From Pirellulales bacterium (GTDB taxonomy: Bacteria; Planctomycetota; Planctomycetia; Pirellulales; JALHPA01), in the NCBI GenBank assembly GCA_033762255.1, contig JANRLT010000041.1:1-64000 (forward strand): 64,000 bases of DNA, in the 5' to 3' direction. The stretch's first letter is position 1. The number at the start of each line of letters is the position of its first letter. Shown here one piece after another: positions 924-59,641 of the stretch. A program made the translations under genes and the position numbers. The notes below the pieces were generated by a model, which worked only from the letters and a program-made list of their open reading frames with translations, ran no database searches and was not told the origin of the DNA.

Positions 924-2597
924 GTGTCGGATTTTCGCCCCCGTCCCCCGCGGTTTGCGCAATTGCCCTGTCGGCTTGGCTGGCGGTTGTTGCTGCTGGC
1001 GTTTTTTGCGCCATTCTGGGGGTGCGCTCCGCTGCGCAGCGATACTTCGGCAGAGCTAGCGGCGTTTCCGTATGCGGGCGGCAGGGAAAAAATCAGCGAT
1101 GGCCCTAACCAACAACCCCGCCCCCGTGTGGAAGTGATCGCCGAAGACCCTCCGCAACAGCGCGCTGGGGATGATGCGGCCCCCTTGCGGGCAACACCAA
1201 TAACGGAAAACGAACGCGCGGTCGAGCGGATTGACACCCTCCCCGACAGCAGTGGTTCTAGCAGAAGTTCGCGTGTCCCGGCCCGGAATACAGTCAACGA
1301 CAATCCCATCGAGGCCGTTACTTCTTCGCCCACCGGCCAGAACGCCCACACGCCATTATCCGCCGCGGCGCAGGCGGAATATTTGCGGGCCTTGGACAAG
1401 GCGGGGATCAGCGATCCGGGCGAACGAGCGGATTTATTATCGGCGATCGAAGCGACCGACCCGGCGTATCGGGCGATCTATTTACGAACCTTAACCGCGC
1501 GGCGGGAGCCAGCCGTCCCCCGCGCTCCCTCCCGTGCTCCCCGGGCCACGGCGGAAGAAATATCGCAACAAACCAACCTTCCCACCCAGGATGAAAGTCA
1601 CATTGCCGCGGACCGACAACCACAAGTTACCGCGGTTAGCGCAAATGCCCCTTTCGCCAATCCCGCAGCCGCCCCTACCCCTCCCGTCAACACCGCCGCT
1701 CCCCTCCAGTCCGTTAATAGCGCGGCAACCTTGGCGCTCAACGTGCCGGCGGAGTTACCCGACCCTGAAAGCACCCATGTTTCCCCCCGGACTATACCCG
1801 CCGCCACGGTCGCCGCGGCGTCCCCCCCGGATTCGCCCGAGGCCGCGCTCTTGGCGGCGCTATCCGCGCTCGAGACCGGTATTCAGCGGGGACAAGGTAA
1901 TCTGTCCGGCGCGCCCAATCAGCGCGAGCTGATGCGCGTGCGGTTGCTCCAGGCCTTGGCCGGTCAGACCGACGCCGCGCTCGAGCCGATCACGGGGCTA
2001 AACCCGCAGCAGCAGGAATTTCTCAATCTGCAAGTCAGCGGATTGGCGGCGCTTTTGGCCCAACAGCCCCAGGCCAGCGCCCCGCGGAGGTTGTCGCTGG
2101 CGGCGGAGCACCTCCGCAACGCCGCCGAGCAACTTGGCCAAAGCGCGGGCCTGATCGTCCGCAATTTGCAGTTTTGCACCGAGATCAAGGGCTTTGGCAC
2201 GTTCACGCGGTTTGCCAAAGAGGTCTTTAAACCGGGGCAAGATTTGCTGCTGTATGCGGAGCTGGATCATTTTACCACCAGCGAGCACGAGCGGGGCTTT
2301 CACACCAAATTCGCCGCCAAGTACCAGGTGTTAGATGGCGTGGGGCAGCGCGTGGTCGAACGGGATCTCATCTTGGCAGAGGAAATCTGCCAAAATCGCC
2401 GCCGCGACTATTTTGTGTCGTACTTTATCAAATTGCCGGAAAATCTAAATCCCGGCGAATACTCGCTCAAACTGATTGTGACGGACCAGTTTAGTGGACA
2501 ATTTGGCGAAAGCGCCCTGAAGTTTTCGATTGCCGAACAACAAACGAAAGCCGCGGCGTTGTCCCCGGAAAGCGCGGTCCCCCTGGCGGGCCGCTAA
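924..2597 (+). CDS. Putative lipoprotein with Pro/Ala-rich linker and conserved C-terminal domain
   Basis: Function unknown. GTG at 924 has GGAAAGG 7 nt upstream and gives an N-terminus with Arg/Pro residues, a hydrophobic stretch (RLLLLAFFAPFWG) and Cys34, an imperfect lipobox. The open frame continues upstream to 777, but that extension would place the signal internally. Residues ~50-370 are low-complexity Ala/Pro/Thr/Ser sequence, probably a disordered spacer. A folded C-terminal domain (~400-540) contains FGTFTRFAKEVFKPGQDLLLYAELDHF and ends in a beta-rich segment (NPGEYSLKLIVTDQ). I recall this C-terminal type as a planctomycete conserved hypothetical but cannot name a family. Its TAA overlaps the TAG of the convergent ATPase gene. 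Confidence 0.75.
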   Translation: MSDFRPRPPRFAQLPCRLGWRLLLLAFFAPFWGCAPLRSDTSAELAAFPYAGGREKISDGPNQQPRPRVEVIAEDPPQQRAGDDAAPLRATPITENERAVERIDTLPDSSGSSRSSRVPARNTVNDNPIEAVTSSPTGQNAHTPLSAAAQAEYLRALDKAGISDPGERADLLSAIEATDPAYRAIYLRTLTARREPAVPRAPSRAPRATAEEISQQTNLPTQDESHIAADRQPQVTAVSANAPFANPAAAPTPPVNTAAPLQSVNSAATLALNVPAELPDPESTHVSPRTIPAATVAAASPPDSPEAALLAALSALETGIQRGQGNLSGAPNQRELMRVRLLQALAGQTDAALEPITGLNPQQQEFLNLQVSGLAALLAQQPQASAPRRLSLAAEHLRNAAEQLGQSAGLIVRNLQFCTEIKGFGTFTRFAKEVFKPGQDLLLYAELDHFTTSEHERGFHTKFAAKYQVLDGVGQRVVERDLILAEEICQNRRRDYFVSYFIKLPENLNPGEYSLKLIVTDQFSGQFGESALKFSIAEQQTKAAALSPESAVPLAGR

Positions 2598-5500
2598 AGG
2601 GAATCTGCGTCGTTGCCGGTGGAAATAATCTCGTCCAGCCACTCGGCGCGGGGCCAGGCATAAGGGCGGAATTTTTCTAGTTGGCCGGTCTCTTCATGGG
2701 AAAAGAGGGCAAAGTGCCGACCGAGCTTGCTGGCGGCGGGGCTGTCGACCAATTGGCTGCTATCGCTGGGATTCATTTGAAAGAGCACCCGCAGGTCAAA
2801 TTCGCGCAGGGTGGCCCGGTCCACGGAACGGAGCACATTGGCCAGGGTGTCGCACCAGACTAGCGTATGCACGCCGACGGCGGGCCCTTCACGGAGAATT
2901 TTGGCCCAGTTTTTGTCCGGCGAGACCGCCGCGGCCTCGCTCCCAAAGGAATAACCGTAATCATTTTCGTCCCGCCGCAGATCGCGAAAACGGCTGAGGT
3001 TGTAAATCACTAGCACTATCGCCGGCGCGCTATCGTCATGCTGAGTGGCACGGCGTTCTACTTCCGCCGCCAAAGCGCCGAGCCGCTCCGCCAGATCGCG
3101 CTTGCCCAGGATGACCGTGGGTAGCCGCAATTGCCGGGCGAGCTGCGCCAATGTGGGTTCATCCGGATGCGCAAACGCAGTCTCGTTGGCGCGCCCCTCG
3201 AGAATCCATACCCCGCCGGGGAGTGGCGCAGAAGCTGGAGTAGCGGAAAAATCCCCCGCGTCGCCTGCGTCGAGTTTGGCACTGGTGGAGTCTTTGTCAC
3301 TGGTTAATGCGTCATCCGCGCTTAATTCGGGGGTCACCGCGGGCCCTGCGTAAAATCCCCGCGCCGCCAGACTGACCAGCACCGCCGCCAAGAGATCGGC
3401 CGAACGGTCCGCTTCTTGGCCCAAGAGCAGCATATTCCCCCCCGCCTGTCGCCGGAGGGGGGCGGTGGTGGGATCCTTGATGCTGACCGGATCTCCCAGG
3501 AATAACTCAATTTCCCGCTGGAGTGGGGTTGCAACTGGGTTAGCGGTAGCGGGCTGATTTAAACCGCGAATCGCCAGCGCGCGGGCCAGTAGGCGGTTTT
3601 CCTCGAGATTGGCAGGCGCGCTTCCCTCAAAAATCACTTGTCGCCGCGTTGGCCAATCAGCCACGGCATACTGGTCGCGCCCGGCGCTCTCCGCGGGAGG
3701 GGCGGAAGCGGGGGAGGTTAAAGATTTCTCGGCTAGCGCGGCATCAGCCATTTCGCGCAATTGTCGCAGATAATCCTCGCGCTCGACCTCGCTGAGCCAG
3801 GCCACCTGAAATGGGCTGTTCCCTTCGAGCCGGCCATTCGCGTCATTGTAAATTGCCTCGCCGGGACGATTGAGCAGCCGCGCGGCGGAGTTGTCGTCGC
3901 TGAGGATCAAGTCGGCGTCGCTCTCGCTGCATTGCAAGGCGATCCGCACTCCCATCTGGCTGATCGTGCTGCGGGCGAGTGTAAACGCCCCCCCCAGTGT
4001 TTGCGAACCCAACAGCAAATGGATGCCAAACGCCCGCCCTTGCCGCACCAGCCGGTCGAGGAGCAATGTCGCCTGTTGCGATACGCGGTCATCCTCGGTA
4101 AAGAATTCTTGAAATTCGTCAATCAATAACAAAATACGCGGCAGGGCGGGCTGGTCGGGGAGCCCGCGGTAACCCTGAATGTCCTGTTTGCCATATTTGC
4201 GAAATAGTTCCCCCCGGGCCTGCATCTCGGCATCTAGCCGCGCTAGCGCGCTCAGGCCAAACTCCCGCTCGCTTTCGATGGCGACCACCCGCGCGTGCGG
4301 CAAGCGGTATTGGGCGTAATCTTTGAACTCGACCCCTTTTTTAAAGTCAATCAGGTAAACCTCCAACTCGTCGGGAGAAAACGTCAAACAGGCATTGACG
4401 ATGATTGCGTGCAACAAGGTTGATTTGCCGGAGCCGGTCTTGCCCGCCATGAGCACATGCTGCGAGGTGCCGGAACCCAGCTTGAGGGCCTGGCGTTTGC
4501 GCGCGCCTGCGCGTCCCAAGGGAATCTCGATCCCGCCCCGCGTGCTTCCCCGCCAAAATTGCTCGGCGGGGGGTGCGATCATATGGAACGGGACCTCCAC
4601 CCGCCGCCCATCGCGCGCGGCATGCCCGGCGGCGTGGACCAGGCGGGTGATCATTTCCTCCGGGGGCAAGTCCAGCGGTGCAAGCGCGAATTGGCCAAAA
4701 TCGCGGTCGGCGTAATGAAACTCTCCATCCTTCCAAACCAGTGTTTCCGCCACCGCCGCCAAATCCTCCAATTGAAAACCGCTAGGCAAGTTTTGCCGCG
4801 TATCGGCCAGAAGCAGCACAAACACGCCGCAGCGCGGACCGCTGGCGGCGATGCTTTGCAGCCGCCGCGCGGCGGCTTCGGTAAAGTTACGCGGAAAATT
4901 GGCCACCACCAAAAATCGAAACGGTTCGGCCACTTCCCCCGCCGCCAGATTGTAGGCGTCGATGCTGGCAAATTCGTTGCGGAGGTATTTTTGAATGATG
5001 GTTTCGATCTGCTCGCTCAGGTCGGTCAGCCGCTGCTCAATATGCAGGGGTTCGGTCCAAATGCGATTGGTGACCAGCGTGTCATCATAATCAGCCAGAT
5101 GCATCATGCCGGCAAAGTTCTTGCCCAGGCCCACGGGGTCGATAATGGTAAACCGCGATTTAGCCGGGGGAATACTGAGTAGCAGACGAAGCATCAACGC
5201 CTGCAAGAGTTGCAAACCGGCGTCGCGCCCTTCGTCCTGGGCTAGAATAACCAGCGAACTGCGGCGGGGAAAATCCAGCACCGCGGGTATGGTCCAGCGG
5301 TCGGGCCAAGGCTGGGTGAGGTTTTGGCCGGACGATGGGGCCGCAGCATCGGCGGGGAGTGTCGCGGAACCGGCCACCGAGTCATGTTCGATGGTCAGTT
5401 GGCCAAAGGGAACGCCGCGCGGCGCAACGGTCGAGGGGAGCCACTGTTCCCAGCAGGGATCGTCCCAATCAGGGTACAGCCGGGCGTCATGCGCGCGCCA

Positions 5501-7099
5501 AGCCGCCTCCGCGGCGCGTAATTCAGCCACTTCCGCCGTCCACCGTTCCGCCAGCATTTGCTGGACTTGTCGGCGACGAGCGCGGTTCTCCGCCAATTCT
5601 GTCTGAAAAGCTTGGGCGGTCGTGGCTTGGTCGCGCTCGGCGGCGCGCTGGATCGCCGCGAACACCGGCTGAAACTTTTTGTTAATCTCTTCCCGCCGTT
5701 CCTGAAAATCTTGCGATAATTCCCCATATTTATCAGAGTAAGTTTGGGTCAATTGCCGTGTCTGCGCTAACTGCCGGGCCTGCAATTCCATGCTTCGCTG
5801 GCGAAATTTTTCCTCGCAGCCGTGCAAGTCGCGAGCCAGTTTTTCCCGCAAGTTGCGCTTTTCTCGCTGCATCAAACGCAGCGCATGCTGGGCTAATTCC
5901 GTCGCCGCGTCCAGTTCCCGCGCGCGCAAACTTTTCCAGGCGGAAATTTCCGTGGACAGTTGGCCGCGCACCCGCAGCTTGTGCCAAATGGTTCCCGCCA
6001 AGCCCGCGGCCAGGCCAATCCCCAGGGAAATCGCCAGGGGAGTCGCGGCGGCTAGCGTGGCGGGCTGGCCCATCCACCACCAGGTGCAGGCCGCCAGTAG
6101 CACTCCCGGCAAGAGGGTGAACAGGATGGGCCATGGTCCCTGCAGTAGTTTGATTCTCCAATCAGCACGCAGCTTTTGGCCCGCGGTCAAGGTGCCGGAC
6201 AAGGCCGCGCGAAAGGCTTCCTGGCATTCGGCGACAGAGCGGGGGGGAGTGGCTGGCTCGGCGGCATTATCGTTAACAGCGGGATGATCGGGCGGGGCGT
6301 GCTCGGCATCGCTTTCAGCGAGAATTTGTTCCACCGGCGCGGCCGGGTCGTTGGGGGACGATTGCCGCGCGGCTGATTCCAGTTCACCTGCCCACGCGTG
6401 CAATCCCGCGGCTTGCAAGTAGCGCGCGGCCTGGTCAAAGAGCGCTCCCTGTTGCTGAACCTGGGCTTCGATCTGTCCCAGGGCCTGATGATAGCGAATC
6501 CGCGGCGTGGGAGAGGTCCCCTCGTAAATGGAGCGAACTTCCCAAGTGTCATGCTGCAGTCGGCGCTCCGAATCATTAACCGCCAACTGCTGTTCGCTGC
6601 GCAAATCCTCCTCGGCATGACGGCGCTCTTGATCCAGTTTTTGGCGTAAGCGCGATTCCTCTTGAGCCAATAGTTGCAGTTGTTCGGCCTGTTGCCGCTG
6701 GCTGGAATCAAGTTGTTGCCGCAACTGCTCTTGGCCGCGGCGGGTGGCCGTGGCATAGTCCCGTTCCAGGGTCTCTATTTTGGCGGATAGTTCGGCCAGC
6801 AATCGTTCATCGGCCCGTCGCTGATTCCACGCCGCGCGAAACGCCCGCCACCAGTGGCGAAGCGCCGTGCCCGCCAGGGGACTTGCGGGATCGGGAGAAT
6901 CCAAAAGCTCCCATTGCTGTCCAAAGTTGGATAAAAGCCCGCCTAGGGCCAGGGAATCTTCTTGATCGACGTCCGCGGCCAAAACTTTTAACATTGGCTC
7001 GGCCGGCAAAGGCGTCCGTGGGTCTATTGTGGGCGGCGTGCCACTACTCGAGTGTGTCCCGGCGGTTTGCCGATCACTGGTGAGTGGTCGATACGACAT
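2594..7099 (-). CDS. Membrane-anchored three-module FtsK/SpoIIIE ATPase (EccC/EssC-like)
   Basis: Probable motor of a type VII/ESX-like export system. The 1501-residue protein has an N-terminal coiled coil (~90-200), two hydrophobic segments (~318-346 and ~350-375), a second coiled coil (~395-520) and three RecA-like modules. Module 1 (~610-780) lacks a recognisable P-loop. Module 2 (~870-1080) carries Walker A GKTGSGKST (~885) and Walker B LLLIDEFQEFF (~988), with the FtsK-type segment RQGRAFGIHLLLGSQT. Module 3 (~1215-1480) has LLLGQEADRSADLL in the P-loop position and is degenerate. Three tandem modules after paired membrane segments recall EccC/EssC rather than FtsK, and no DNA-binding gamma domain is seen. 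It lies 319 nt downstream of a WXG100-like gene on the same strand. The export role is inferred; the ATPase family is clear. Confidence 0.88.
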   Translation of the reverse strand: MSYRPLTSDRQTAGTHSSSGTPPTIDPRTPLPAEPMLKVLAADVDQEDSLALGGLLSNFGQQWELLDSPDPASPLAGTALRHWWRAFRAAWNQRRADERLLAELSAKIETLERDYATATRRGQEQLRQQLDSSQRQQAEQLQLLAQEESRLRQKLDQERRHAEEDLRSEQQLAVNDSERRLQHDTWEVRSIYEGTSPTPRIRYHQALGQIEAQVQQQGALFDQAARYLQAAGLHAWAGELESAARQSSPNDPAAPVEQILAESDAEHAPPDHPAVNDNAAEPATPPRSVAECQEAFRAALSGTLTAGQKLRADWRIKLLQGPWPILFTLLPGVLLAACTWWWMGQPATLAAATPLAISLGIGLAAGLAGTIWHKLRVRGQLSTEISAWKSLRARELDAATELAQHALRLMQREKRNLREKLARDLHGCEEKFRQRSMELQARQLAQTRQLTQTYSDKYGELSQDFQERREEINKKFQPVFAAIQRAAERDQATTAQAFQTELAENRARRRQVQQMLAERWTAEVAELRAAEAAWRAHDARLYPDWDDPCWEQWLPSTVAPRGVPFGQLTIEHDSVAGSATLPADAAAPSSGQNLTQPWPDRWTIPAVLDFPRRSSLVILAQDEGRDAGLQLLQALMLRLLLSIPPAKSRFTIIDPVGLGKNFAGMMHLADYDDTLVTNRIWTEPLHIEQRLTDLSEQIETIIQKYLRNEFASIDAYNLAAGEVAEPFRFLVVANFPRNFTEAAARRLQSIAASGPRCGVFVLLLADTRQNLPSGFQLEDLAAVAETLVWKDGEFHYADRDFGQFALAPLDLPPEEMITRLVHAAGHAARDGRRVEVPFHMIAPPAEQFWRGSTRGGIEIPLGRAGARKRQALKLGSGTSQHVLMAGKTGSGKSTLLHAIIVNACLTFSPDELEVYLIDFKKGVEFKDYAQYRLPHARVVAIESEREFGLSALARLDAEMQARGELFRKYGKQDIQGYRGLPDQPALPRILLLIDEFQEFFTEDDRVSQQATLLLDRLVRQGRAFGIHLLLGSQTLGGAFTLARSTISQMGVRIALQCSESDADLILSDDNSAARLLNRPGEAIYNDANGRLEGNSPFQVAWLSEVEREDYLRQLREMADAALAEKSLTSPASAPPAESAGRDQYAVADWPTRRQVIFEGSAPANLEENRLLARALAIRGLNQPATANPVATPLQREIELFLGDPVSIKDPTTAPLRRQAGGNMLLLGQEADRSADLLAAVLVSLAARGFYAGPAVTPELSADDALTSDKDSTSAKLDAGDAGDFSATPASAPLPGGVWILEGRANETAFAHPDEPTLAQLARQLRLPTVILGKRDLAERLGALAAEVERRATQHDDSAPAIVLVIYNLSRFRDLRRDENDYGYSFGSEAAAVSPDKNWAKILREGPAVGVHTLVWCDTLANVLRSVDRATLREFDLRVLFQMNPSDSSQLVDSPAASKLGRHFALFSHEETGQLEKFRPYAWPRAEWLDEIISTGNDADSL

Positions 7100-7233
7100 A
7101 ATGGGGCGTGGGGGTAAAATGTACTCCGCTCACTCCGTGGGCGGAATGTGTGGAAGCAACGTTATCAAAAAATCAAAAGTGTTGCATCAATCGACTCATG
7201 CTTTGTCAACGATTCGTTTTAGGATGAGCCGTA

Positions 7234-7330
7234 GGGCGCTAGCCCACGGTTGGAGCGGCAAAAACCGTGGACTAGAGCCCAGCGGCTGATTGGCTTAACT
7301 CAAATCTTTAACTGTGACAAAGCTCTAACT
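7234..7330. repeat. Dispersed hairpin-plus-tail element, copy 1
   Basis: A 16-bp imperfect inverted repeat (GGGCGCTAGCCCACGG at 7234-7249 against 7265-7280, two mismatches) is followed by an AT-richer tail containing AACTCAAATCTTT and CTGTGACAAAGC. The same stem and tail recur at 32641-32735. It lies in the 319-bp gap upstream of the ATPase gene. Confidence 0.75.
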
Positions 7331-7333
7331 TAC

Positions 7334-7420
7334 ATCTCACGGAGTGAGCTGGGTACTTTTAGCAACTCACGGAGTGCGATGAGTACTTTAAATATCTCAC
7401 GGAGTGAGCTGAGTACCGTT
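7334..7420. repeat. Three copies of a 27-bp unit with exact 30-bp period
   Basis: Units start at 7334, 7364 and 7394. Each is of the form ATCTCACGGAGTGAGCT followed by (G/A)(G/A)GTAC; copy 2 is degenerate. Each holds the small palindrome CTCAC-GGA-GTGAG, which is also the core of the terminator hairpins at 59477-59670. The array fills the end of the gap between the WXG100-like gene and the ATPase gene and touches the stop codon at 7419. No T-run follows, so terminator function here is doubtful. Confidence 0.8.
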
Positions 7421-7640
7421 ATTGGCAATCTTGCTCCGCACGTTGAAGTAATACAGCCAATCGCTGCGTGGTATCCAAAAATGTTTGTATTTTCAGCGGC
7501 AATGCCGCCAAATGTTCCTCCGCATAGCGGGCCGCGGCGGCATCCCGCCACGTTTCCTGGCAAACTTGCCATTTGACCTGCAAATTTTCCAGGGCGTGGG
7601 CGAGTAAACTACCGCCAGTATGAAAATCGGATTGGGGCAT
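7419..7640 (-). CDS. Small WXG100-like protein (second copy of locus)
   Basis: A 73-residue, predominantly helical protein with Trp-Arg-Asp at residues 31-33 in the context ETWRDAAAARYAEEH. This places a W-x-D turn between two helices, as in WXG100/Esx proteins, where the turn is W-x-G. It parallels the TTWRDQEQQKFAAEF turn of the 90-residue protein at 8372-8644. The frame stays open upstream, but the ATG at 7640 is the first start after the end of the preceding gene (26 nt gap) and gives the normal Esx-like geometry. No good Shine-Dalgarno is visible, so it may be translated by coupling. Family assignment rests on size, the turn and context. Confidence 0.7.
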   Translation of the reverse strand: MPQSDFHTGGSLLAHALENLQVKWQVCQETWRDAAAARYAEEHLAALPLKIQTFLDTTQRLAVLLQRAEQDCQ

Positions 7641-7666
7641 AAAACGGCGGAGGAACAACGCTTGCT

Positions 7667-8293
7667 TTAGGAATTGGAAGATTCCGCGGCGACAGGCTCG
7701 CGGGAGGATTGGTCGGCTGGCACTTGTGTAATCGCGGATGAAGTCGCTGGTGGCGGGGGAATTTGCGCATCCTGGCTGGCATCCACCGCCGCCACGGGGG
7801 GGATGTCCGGCGCGCGGACCGCCAGGTAATCCTCCACCTGGGCGATGATTTTTTGCAACTGCGCGATTGCCCGGGGCAAGTCTCCATCCAGTAGCGATAT
7901 TGTCTGGGCAAACCGGGCCTGAAATTCGTTCCAGGCGTGCTGCGCCTCCCGACCCCAGTGCTGCACCGCGGCTAACTTTTGTTCGGTGGTCTTTAACCGT
8001 TGTTCCGCGCGGGCCAGGGCTTTTTTTTCGTCGGTGCAGTCGGGAATATGGTCGGACAGTTGCCGCTGAATGCGGGCCTGCCGCAGGTTGTCCTTGGCCA
8101 CGCCCAGGCCGTCCCAGGCCTTGCGGTTTTCGCTTTTCCAGCGTCGGGGTTGTTCCTTGCAAATCCAATCGACCCCTTGCCGCGCTTCAGTTTCTAGCAT
8201 TTCCAACGCCTGCCGCGCGGTGGATTGAAAGATGATGAGCGCCGCGCGAAATTCGTGCAGGGCGTCCAGCGATTGTACTTGGGCGGTGGACAT
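7667..8293 (-). CDS. Helical protein of the WXG100/ATPase locus
   Basis: 208 residues with no signal peptide and no membrane segment. Residues ~1-165 are Gln/Ala/Glu/Arg-rich helix with heptad-like stretches (AEQRLKTTEQKLAAV; LPRAIAQLQKIIAQVEDYL), suggesting a helical bundle or coiled coil. Residues ~165-208 are a Pro/Ala/Ser-rich tail (PPVAAVDASQ; IPPPPATSS). It sits 78 nt after the WXG100 gene and 26 nt before the second WXG100-like gene on the same strand. It could be a substrate, an adaptor or a chaperone of the putative export ATPase. I do not recognise a named family. Confidence 0.75.
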   Translation of the reverse strand: MSTAQVQSLDALHEFRAALIIFQSTARQALEMLETEARQGVDWICKEQPRRWKSENRKAWDGLGVAKDNLRQARIQRQLSDHIPDCTDEKKALARAEQRLKTTEQKLAAVQHWGREAQHAWNEFQARFAQTISLLDGDLPRAIAQLQKIIAQVEDYLAVRAPDIPPVAAVDASQDAQIPPPPATSSAITQVPADQSSREPVAAESSNS

Positions 8294-8371
8294 GGGGATC
8301 GCGTCAAAACCTTTAGAAGTAGAGTATACCCGCGTGATCCATGGCGGGATTTAAGCGACGGCAGGTCCCCC

Positions 8372-8644
8372 CTAGCGCTGATTCAAATACTCCTCGATCC
8401 GTTCCGCCTTGCGCATCAAAAACGGCACATAGAGTTCGCTATGCTGGGCAAAGCGATTAAAGGTCTGCATGAGCTGCGTGAATTCGGCGGCGAATTTTTG
8501 TTGTTCCTGGTCGCGCCAGGTTGTTCCCAACGCCTGAAATTGCTTGTTGAGGCCCGATAGTTGGGTCAACAATTCTGTGTTAAAATGCCGCAGTTGGCCC
8601 GCAAAACGGCGCACATCGCCGGGATCGACAATTGCTTGGGACAT
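8372..8644 (-). CDS. WXG100-family protein
   Basis: A 90-residue protein that is almost entirely helical apart from a central turn with Trp43-Arg44-Asp45 (TTWRDQEQQKFAAEF). This matches the size and helix-turn-helix plan of ESAT-6/WXG100 proteins, with Asp replacing the usual Gly. I see no C-terminal YxxxD/E export motif, which ESX substrates in Actinobacteria often carry. I chose ATG at 8644; a longer in-frame extension to 8734 is low-complexity and would spoil the family length. It is the first gene of the small-protein set leading to the ATPase at 2594-7099. It is likely a secreted or machine-associated helical hairpin. Confidence 0.82.
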   Translation of the reverse strand: MSQAIVDPGDVRRFAGQLRHFNTELLTQLSGLNKQFQALGTTWRDQEQQKFAAEFTQLMQTFNRFAQHSELYVPFLMRKAERIEEYLNQR

Positions 8645-59476: not shown

Positions 59477-59500
59477 CCTCTCACTCCGTGAGAGGTTTTT
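59477..59500 (+). terminator. Intrinsic terminator 1 after VIT-VWA gene
   Basis: Perfect 8-bp stem CCTCTCAC/GTGAGAGG with loop TCC, followed directly by TTTTT. It is 30 bp after the VIT-VWA stop codon. Confidence 0.8.
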
Positions 59501-59506
59501 CGAGTA

Positions 59507-59536
59507 GCCCTCTTACTTTGTGAGAGGGCATTTTTT
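59507..59536 (+). terminator. Intrinsic terminator 2
   Basis: GCCCTCTTAC/GTGAGAGGGC (10-bp stem, one wobble) with loop TTT, followed by A and six T. Confidence 0.78.
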
Positions 59537-59641
59537 GTGGGTTATGGTTTTTGGTCTGGTTGTTTGCTTTTCTCTGAAACAAATGTCCCCTCATTCGCGC
59601 TGTCTTTTATTTCTCTCACGGAGTGAGAGGAGTACAATGTC

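What the first reader, a model, noticed from the sequence alone, without database searches (positions are those of the whole stretch)
2594..8644. ESX/type VII-like locus with WXG100 proteins in a planctomycete
A three-module FtsK/SpoIIIE ATPase with paired membrane segments is encoded with a 90-residue WXG100 protein, a 73-residue WXG100-like protein and a 208-residue helical protein, all on one strand. No EccB, EccD, EccE or mycosin-like gene is present, so this would be a minimal or differently built export system. The small proteins use W-R-D in place of W-x-G.
Basis: partly seen in the sequence, partly recalled or inferred. Interest (0 to 1): 0.75.

Follow-up and report, generated by a model that had tools for sequence, protein, structure and literature searches.

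The report
Toxin-free minimal type VII-like secretion cassette
Four neighbouring genes in this planctomycete encode a membrane-anchored pump motor and three small helical partner proteins that look like a stripped-down relative of the 'type VII' protein exporter; the set is kept or lost as a unit across planctomycetes, recurs in Verrucomicrobia, and carries no recognisable toxin, which is unusual for such systems.

Summary
In detail: on the minus strand lie a WXG100 protein (90 aa), a long helical hairpin (208 aa), a second WxD hairpin (73 aa) and a 1501-aa FtsK/EccC-like ATPase. It is a conserved four-gene cassette, not chance. Gene order W-H-S-T recurs in 68 of 80 public loci (planctomycetes and verrucomicrobia); in 49 related genomes all four genes occur once each (32) or are all absent (16), even where they are unlinked. 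The ATPase has one active (middle) domain, a degenerate third domain and a conserved membrane-helix pair between coiled coils. It groups with WXG-linked plasmid ATPases, not with FtsK DNA translocases. On plasmids, the helical-protein slot carries a toxin (WHH nuclease plus SUKH immunity in Helicobacter); here the same targeting hairpin lacks a toxin domain. Best reading: a type VII-like export motor acting on a three-protein helical complex, reminiscent of LXG-Lap1-Lap2. The ATPase/WXG pair was noted before (2012, 2016, 2024), so this is a new variant of a known kind. New are the toxin-free, single-copy, largely vertical form and the obligate four-gene unit. It fails several defining features of canonical T7SS (WxG, YxxxD/E, EccD/YukD, EssB). 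Export itself is unproven.

The parts
8372..8644 (-). Gene 1 (W): WXG100 protein, 90 aa, WRD at the hairpin turn, family-specific C-terminus LxRKAxRxxEYxxQR
   Evidence: PF06013 41.3 bits; profile hits HP0062 and EsxB structures; one copy per genome
7667..8293 (-). Gene 2 (H): 208 aa; two antiparallel helices of about 72 residues (9-79, 87-158) plus a disordered tail; cargo slot without toxin domain
   Evidence: model pLDDT about 98 in the helices; profile matches N-terminal part of slot-2 proteins on plasmids; one copy per genome
7419..7640 (-). Gene 3 (S): 73-aa WxD helical hairpin, divergent WXG100-like partner
   Evidence: model pLDDT 87.6, helices 4-30, 34-44 and 47-72; EsxB Z 7.2 over 72 residues, tied with unrelated hairpins; one copy per genome
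2594..7099 (-). Gene 4 (T): 1501-aa ATPase: coiled coil - membrane-helix pair - coiled coil - D1 (degenerate) - D2 (active FtsK/EccC-like) - D3 (degenerate)
   Evidence: searches (PF01580; EccCa TIGR03924 110 bits, cut-off 509)
5999..6127 (-). Membrane-helix pair of the ATPase (residues 325-367), paired peaks in 18 of 20 aligned relatives and in 9 of 9 verrucomicrobial ATPases over 1200 aa
   Evidence: hydropathy
4397..4468 (-). Walker A region of D2 (residues 878-901, contains AGKTGSGKST), invariant core in the family
7117..7421 (.). Intergenic stretch between genes 3 and 4 with three 30-nt tandem repeats and one inverted copy; probably an insertion, not part of the system

Best explanation
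The four genes form one functional unit: a minimal, diderm, type VII-like export module. The ATPase is anchored in the cytoplasmic membrane by a membrane-helix pair set between coiled coils, and (inferred) forms an FtsK/EccC-type hexamer driven only by its middle domain. The three helical proteins (inferred) form a complex: the long hairpin H is bound by the two small hairpins W and S, as an LXG domain is bound by Lap1 and Lap2. This complex is recognised by the ATPase and moved across the cytoplasmic membrane. On plasmids of other phyla H is fused to, or replaced by, a toxin-bearing protein; in planctomycetes and verrucomicrobia the domesticated form moves H itself, or uses H-W-S as a structural or adaptor assembly. 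Shown here: homology, gene order, co-retention, ATPase grouping, hairpin models, absence of a toxin domain. Inferred: complex formation, hexamer, export, direction and destination.
For: WXG100 above the Pfam cut-off with HP0062/EsxB as structural relatives. ATPase D2 is best matched by EccC structures and the EccCa model, and aligns to Streptomyces EccC over about 700 columns (E 4e-18). The D2 tree puts it with WXG-linked plasmid ATPases (100/97) and apart from FtsK translocases (100/99), including the genome's own FtsK. All four genes are present once (32) or absent together (16) in 48 genomes, and partial only in a 73%-complete one, even when scattered over the chromosome (G143: 0.24, 0.71, 1.94 and 2.66 Mb). 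Order W-H-S-T in 68 of 80 public loci. A Helicobacter plasmid with the same order carries a WHH nuclease plus SUKH immunity in the H slot. The H profile matches N-terminal hairpins of the Rhodococcus (E 1.3e-6), Deinococcus (4.8e-5) and Caballeronia (9e-4) slot-2 proteins, while the best of 36 controls reaches 0.036. LXG-Lap precedent: PMC9600955.
Against: No secretion, complex or phenotype is shown. There is no YxxxD/E export motif in 80 of 80 W proteins, no EccD/YukD or EssB in the genome, and no known way across the outer membrane. The ATPase is far below EccC/EssC equivalog cut-offs. Coiled-coil proteins attract false matches; the Helicobacter effector was not matched by the H profile. The fold match of S to EsxB is tied with unrelated hairpins. 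H itself has no informative fold neighbour.
Confidence: 0.62

Rival explanations
1. The cassette is an intracellular or membrane-bound machine that does not export anything: the ATPase works on the hairpin proteins as an assembly or remodelling motor at the membrane, or as part of stress or defence signalling like the TerY-P/CoCoNuT-linked relatives.
For: Relatives sit beside TerY-P triads and CARF proteins and the CoCoNuT paper argues for a different mechanism in TM-less forms. PADLOC models SspH and mad8 match the ATPase domain. There is no export motif and no outer-membrane component.
Against: The planctomycete ATPase has a conserved membrane-helix pair, no defence neighbours are conserved around it, and it has WXG100 proteins, whose known role is type VII transport.
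Confidence: 0.2
2. It is a decayed polymorphic-toxin exporter: an ancestral WXG-toxin module that lost its toxin and persists as an orphan or as immunity to relatives.
For: Toxins are present in the same slot on plasmids; some Phycisphaerales H proteins have a weak Imm33-like tail.
Against: Invariant catalytic residues, 81% mean identity in D2, one copy and joint retention across many families show strong selection; decay would scatter the losses of single genes.
Confidence: 0.1
3. It still exports toxins, encoded elsewhere in the genome with unrecognised targeting domains.
For: From general knowledge, many T7SS substrates are unlinked and poorly conserved; the toxin-bearing relatives on plasmids show that this ATPase class can serve toxins.
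Against: Only one H-type and one WXG100-type sequence was found in each genome searched.
Confidence: 0.08

Closest known systems
[quoted passage not shown] 2012, PMC3482391; named for planctomycetes and verrucomicrobia among others)
   Same: WXG100 protein with this kind of ATPase, in the same phyla; this is the earliest naming found of the pair
   Different: The footnote calls them mobile versions of T7SS; here they are single-copy, chromosomal and largely vertical. The footnote does not mention the H and S partners or the absence of toxin
Helicobacter pylori HP0062/HP0066 'WXG100 secretion system' (PMC4978471, PMC3397514)
   Same: WRD hairpin dimer (HP0062) is the best structural relative of gene 1; FtsK-type ATPase nearby; described as minimal T7SS
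   Different: Cluster comes with an HNH/EndoVII nuclease; the related Helicobacter plasmid ATPase (823 aa) is much shorter at its N-terminus. The chromosomal HP0061-HP0066 genes were not fetched here
CoCoNuT/TerY-P-linked EssC-like ATPase with two WXG100 proteins (PMC11090510)
   Same: Three ATPase domains with only D2 active, N-terminal coiled coil, two WXG100-like proteins, one of them without the motif, and a coiled-coil protein
   Different: There the ATPase lacks membrane helices and the coiled-coil protein is fused to a restriction-type nuclease; here the ATPase has a membrane-helix pair and H has no nuclease
T7SSb LXG-Lap1-Lap2 pre-secretion complex (PMC9600955)
   Same: Helical targeting domain plus two small WXG100-like partners in one operon
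   Different: Lap1 carries FxxxD; here no such motif, no LXG Pfam match, no toxin
T7SSa/T7SSb and T7SSc-T7SSj of Gram-positive bacteria (PMC11217815)
   Same: WXG100 protein and EccC/EssC-type ATPase as the shared core
   Different: No EsaB/EccD-type ubiquitin-like protein found, diderm host, ATPase below EccC/EssC equivalog cut-offs

Membership tests
Type VII secretion system (ESX/Ess) | WXG100 family protein | tested here: met
   PF06013 41.3 bits over cut-off 27.3; EsxB/HP0062 profile hits
Type VII secretion system (ESX/Ess) | W-x-G motif at the hairpin turn | tested here: not met
   WRD 68, WQD 12, WxG 0 of 80
Type VII secretion system (ESX/Ess) | YxxxD/E (or FxxxD) export motif | tested here: not met
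   0 of 80 W proteins in the last 32 residues
Type VII secretion system (ESX/Ess) | EccC/EssC ATPase by curated equivalog models | tested here: not met
   TIGR03924 110 bits against 509; TIGR03928 87 against 778
Type VII secretion system (ESX/Ess) | EccC-like layout: membrane anchor, active FtsK domain, further degenerate ATPase domain | tested here: met
Type VII secretion system (ESX/Ess) | EccD/EsaB(YukD) ubiquitin-like component | tested here: not met
   PF08817 absent from the genome, control B. subtilis rings
Type VII secretion system (ESX/Ess) | EssB/YukC (T7SSb) | tested here: not met
   PF10140 absent, control B. subtilis rings
Type VII secretion system (ESX/Ess) | EccB (T7SSa) | tested here: inconclusive
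   PF05108 no match, but no control genome rang either
Type VII secretion system (ESX/Ess) | EccE and mycosin (T7SSa) | not tested
   no genome search left; no such gene is conserved near the cassette
Type VII secretion system (ESX/Ess) | ATPase-dependent export of the WXG100 protein | not testable with these tools
   needs a wet-lab assay
Solo-WXG / three-domain-ATPase module (Zhang 2012; CoCoNuT-linked) | Only the middle of three ATPase domains active | tested here: met
   P-loop intact only in D2; D3 is degenerate kin of D2; the ATPase nature of D1 itself is not proven (E 0.27)
Solo-WXG / three-domain-ATPase module (Zhang 2012; CoCoNuT-linked) | ATPase groups with WXG-linked ATPases, not FtsK | tested here: met
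   100/97 support, long branches noted
Solo-WXG / three-domain-ATPase module (Zhang 2012; CoCoNuT-linked) | Mobile element | tested here: not met
   one copy per genome; many taxonomic families group together in trees; no mobile genes conserved nearby
Solo-WXG / three-domain-ATPase module (Zhang 2012; CoCoNuT-linked) | Coiled-coil protein fused to nuclease or toxin | tested here: not met
   no toxin domain in 18 H proteins; 208 aa, hairpin plus disordered tail
LXG-Lap1-Lap2 system | LXG domain | tested here: not met
   no LXG match for gene 2 in Pfam at E up to 1
LXG-Lap1-Lap2 system | Long helical protein with two small WXG100-like partners in one operon | tested here: met
FtsK/SpoIIIE DNA translocase | Groups with DNA translocases in a phylogeny | tested here: not met
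   canonical FtsK is a separate gene, G000:C28

The most novel reading that the evidence does not exclude
An old subtype of type VII-like export, native to diderm bacteria of the PVC group and vertically kept, that moves or builds a toxin-free three-hairpin complex (W-H-S) through a membrane-anchored single-engine ATPase, with a housekeeping envelope role instead of toxin delivery.
Probability: 0.35. Interest if true: 0.82.

Novelty: new variant of a known kind. Interest (0 to 1): 0.62.

Why it matters
A 2024 survey still describes type VII secretion as a system of Bacillota and Actinomycetota (PMC11217815), and its best-known cargo outside mycobacteria is toxins. A four-gene, toxin-free, obligately co-retained version in diderm planctomycetes and verrucomicrobia would show the smallest working set of a type VII machine, give a simple system for reconstitution (one motor, three small proteins), and raise the question of what such a motor does when it carries no toxin and how its product passes, or stays within, a two-membrane envelope.

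Tried and rejected
FtsK DNA translocase: rejected by the tree and by a separate canonical FtsK gene. Toxin or immunity hidden in gene 2: Pfam on 18 members found none; an Imm33-like tail in Phycisphaerales is below the cut-off. Other WXG100 or H-type substrates in the genome: none found. Conserved neighbours beyond the four genes: none. Direct profile kinship of S or H with W by hhalign: none, so a common WXG100 origin of S rests on fold and motif only. Fold search for H and S: no discriminating match. PDB profile search for D1 and D3: only weak EccC for D1 (E 0.14) and nothing for D3. Single-sequence scan of genome contigs found nothing; the alignment scan found at least 549 relatives.
Full report
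Observation. The four ORFs exist as stated, all on the minus strand: gene 1 (W) 8372-8644, gene 2 (H) 7667-8293, gene 3 (S) 7419-7640, gene 4 (T) 2594-7099. W passes the Pfam WXG100 cut-off (41.3 against 27.3 bits). T has a strong FtsK_SpoIIIE domain at 857-1034 (97.9 bits). H and S match no curated family. The genome has exactly one WXG100 match and two FtsK-domain genes, one of them a canonical FtsK elsewhere.

More than chance. In the 20 planctomycete loci first fetched, W, H and S lie upstream of T in nearly all; G009 (L035) has T alone there, and G001 is cut by a contig end. A phylum-wide search gave W in 30 of 246 planctomycete genomes. By stop-codon order 68 of these 80 loci read W-H-S-T, 3 W-H-S, 5 W-H and 4 W; some of the short ones end at contig ends, others are unlinked. 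The 80 are the best-scoring ones, so the share is not an unbiased frequency.

One functional unit. Among 49 genomes, W, H, S and T are each present in one copy in the same 32 genomes and all absent from the same 16; the 49th (G001, 73% complete) shows only S and T at a contig end. This holds where the genes are unlinked: in the single-contig genome G143 T, W, S and H sit at about 0.24, 0.71, 1.94 and 2.66 Mb; in G062 W at 2.50, H and S at 4.30 and T at 5.92 Mb. (In fragmented assemblies T is sometimes split over contigs and then counts as more than one piece.) Joint retention of unlinked genes is strong evidence that they work together. No further gene is conserved near the cassette.

The ATPase. 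It has coiled coils on both sides of a membrane-helix pair (325-343, 349-367 in the window protein; paired hydropathy peaks in 18 of 20 aligned relatives and 9 of 9 verrucomicrobial ones over 1200 aa), then D1, D2 and D3. Only D2 has an intact P-loop, and it is the best conserved part (81% mean column identity). D3 is a degenerate copy of the same fold (hhalign 96.6%, E 7e-10). D1 cannot be proven from sequence against D2 (E 0.27), but in the alignment to Streptomyces EccC (E 4e-18) D1 falls on the EccC region before its first ATPase domain, D2 on the first and D3 on the second ATPase domain. In a 69-row tree of D2, planctomycete sequences are one side of a branch (93/81) and join the WXG-linked plasmid ATPases of Helicobacter, Caballeronia, Rhodococcus and Deinococcus with 100/97; FtsK translocases, including the genome's own, are apart (100/99). 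Several long branches are flagged in that tree, so deep placement is not firm. Within planctomycetes many taxonomic families group (f5, f7, f8, f13, f15, f17, f21), and in a second, quick tree 10 of 11 verrucomicrobial sequences form one clade (the eleventh is a broken row): mostly vertical, with a single transfer between phyla not excluded.

The small proteins. W's closest solved relatives are H. pylori HP0062, which also has WRD, and EsxB. All 80 W proteins have WxD (68 WRD, 12 WQD), none WxG and none a YxxxD/E or FxxxD motif near the C-terminus; instead 61 of 80 share LxRKAxRxxEYxxQR. S is predicted as a hairpin with the WRD at the turn (pLDDT 87.6); EsxB is its top structural match (Z 7.2 over 72 residues), but unrelated hairpins are tied. 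H is predicted as two antiparallel helices of about 72 residues (pLDDT about 98) with a disordered tail.

What H is. Relatives of T on plasmids carry the same order with toxin genes in the H slot: Helicobacter sp. NHP19-012 has WXG - WHH/colicin-DNase protein - SUKH immunity - small protein - ATPase; Caballeronia has WXG100 - 436-aa protein with helical N-terminus - 113 aa - 76 aa - ATPase beside a TerY-P triad; Rhodococcus and Deinococcus have analogous sets in another order. A profile of 94 H proteins matches the N-terminal part of the Rhodococcus (E 1.3e-6, 134 columns), the Deinococcus (4.8e-5) and the Caballeronia (9e-4) slot-2 proteins, while the best of 36 coiled-coil, shuffled and reversed controls reached 0.036; these three also share a C-x(n)-C-x-x-E signature, which in the planctomycete H proteins that have it (41 of 76) lies at the hairpin turn. 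The Helicobacter protein was not matched. So H is best read as the targeting hairpin of this effector class without the toxin. No toxin domain was found in 18 planctomycete H proteins.

Mechanism (inferred). Motor T sits in the cytoplasmic membrane, hexamerises and is driven by D2. W, H and S form a pre-export complex, as LXG toxins do with Lap1 and Lap2 (PMC9600955). T recognises this complex, possibly through the conserved W tail, and moves it. What becomes of it beyond the cytoplasmic membrane is unknown.

Prior work. Zhang et al. [quoted passage not shown] HP0062/HP0066 have been called a WXG100 secretion system or minimal T7SS (PMC4978471; PMC3397514). The CoCoNuT paper describes TM-less relatives with two WXG100 proteins and a coiled-coil nuclease (PMC11090510). 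What I did not find described: the W-H-S-T set as an obligate unit in planctomycetes and verrucomicrobia, its toxin-free and single-copy state, and the membrane-anchored ATPase form. The paper library holds open-licence papers only, so earlier descriptions in subscription journals may exist.

Noticed in passing
7117-7421 and 59482-59625: Three 30-nt tandem repeats with a CTCACTCCGTGAG-type palindrome and one inverted copy lie between genes 3 and 4; the core CACTCCGTGAG occurs 5 times in the window (0.01 expected), also as an inverted pair near 59.5 kb. Looks like a small mobile or palindromic repeat element that widened the gap before the ATPase gene.
   Followed up: partly
L083:5611-11569: In a distant planctomycete (G145) the ATPase is split: domains D1-D3 in one ORF and a coiled-coil/membrane part in a separate following ORF.
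   Followed up: no
L178:8352-9437, L194:8327-9364, L174:8283-9308: Some Phycisphaerales H proteins have a C-terminal extension of about 160 aa with a weak Imm33-like match (E 7e-5 for two of them, below the Pfam cut-off): an immunity-like fold in the slot where relatives carry toxins.
   Followed up: partly
G143, G062, G125, G174, G189, G230, G251 (family f21); G009: The genes of the cassette are partly or wholly unlinked on the chromosome in these genomes, yet all four are kept.
   Followed up: yes
window ATPase residues 1-120 and about 1260-1310: The window ATPase (1501 aa) is about 80-200 aa longer than its relatives (about 1300-1420 aa), through N-terminal and D3 insertions.
   Followed up: no
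L065:11417-12361 (Rhodococcus plasmid): The slot-2 protein joins the targeting hairpin to a C-terminal domain that looks ParB-like by eye, without a Pfam match: a possible new effector type.
   Followed up: no
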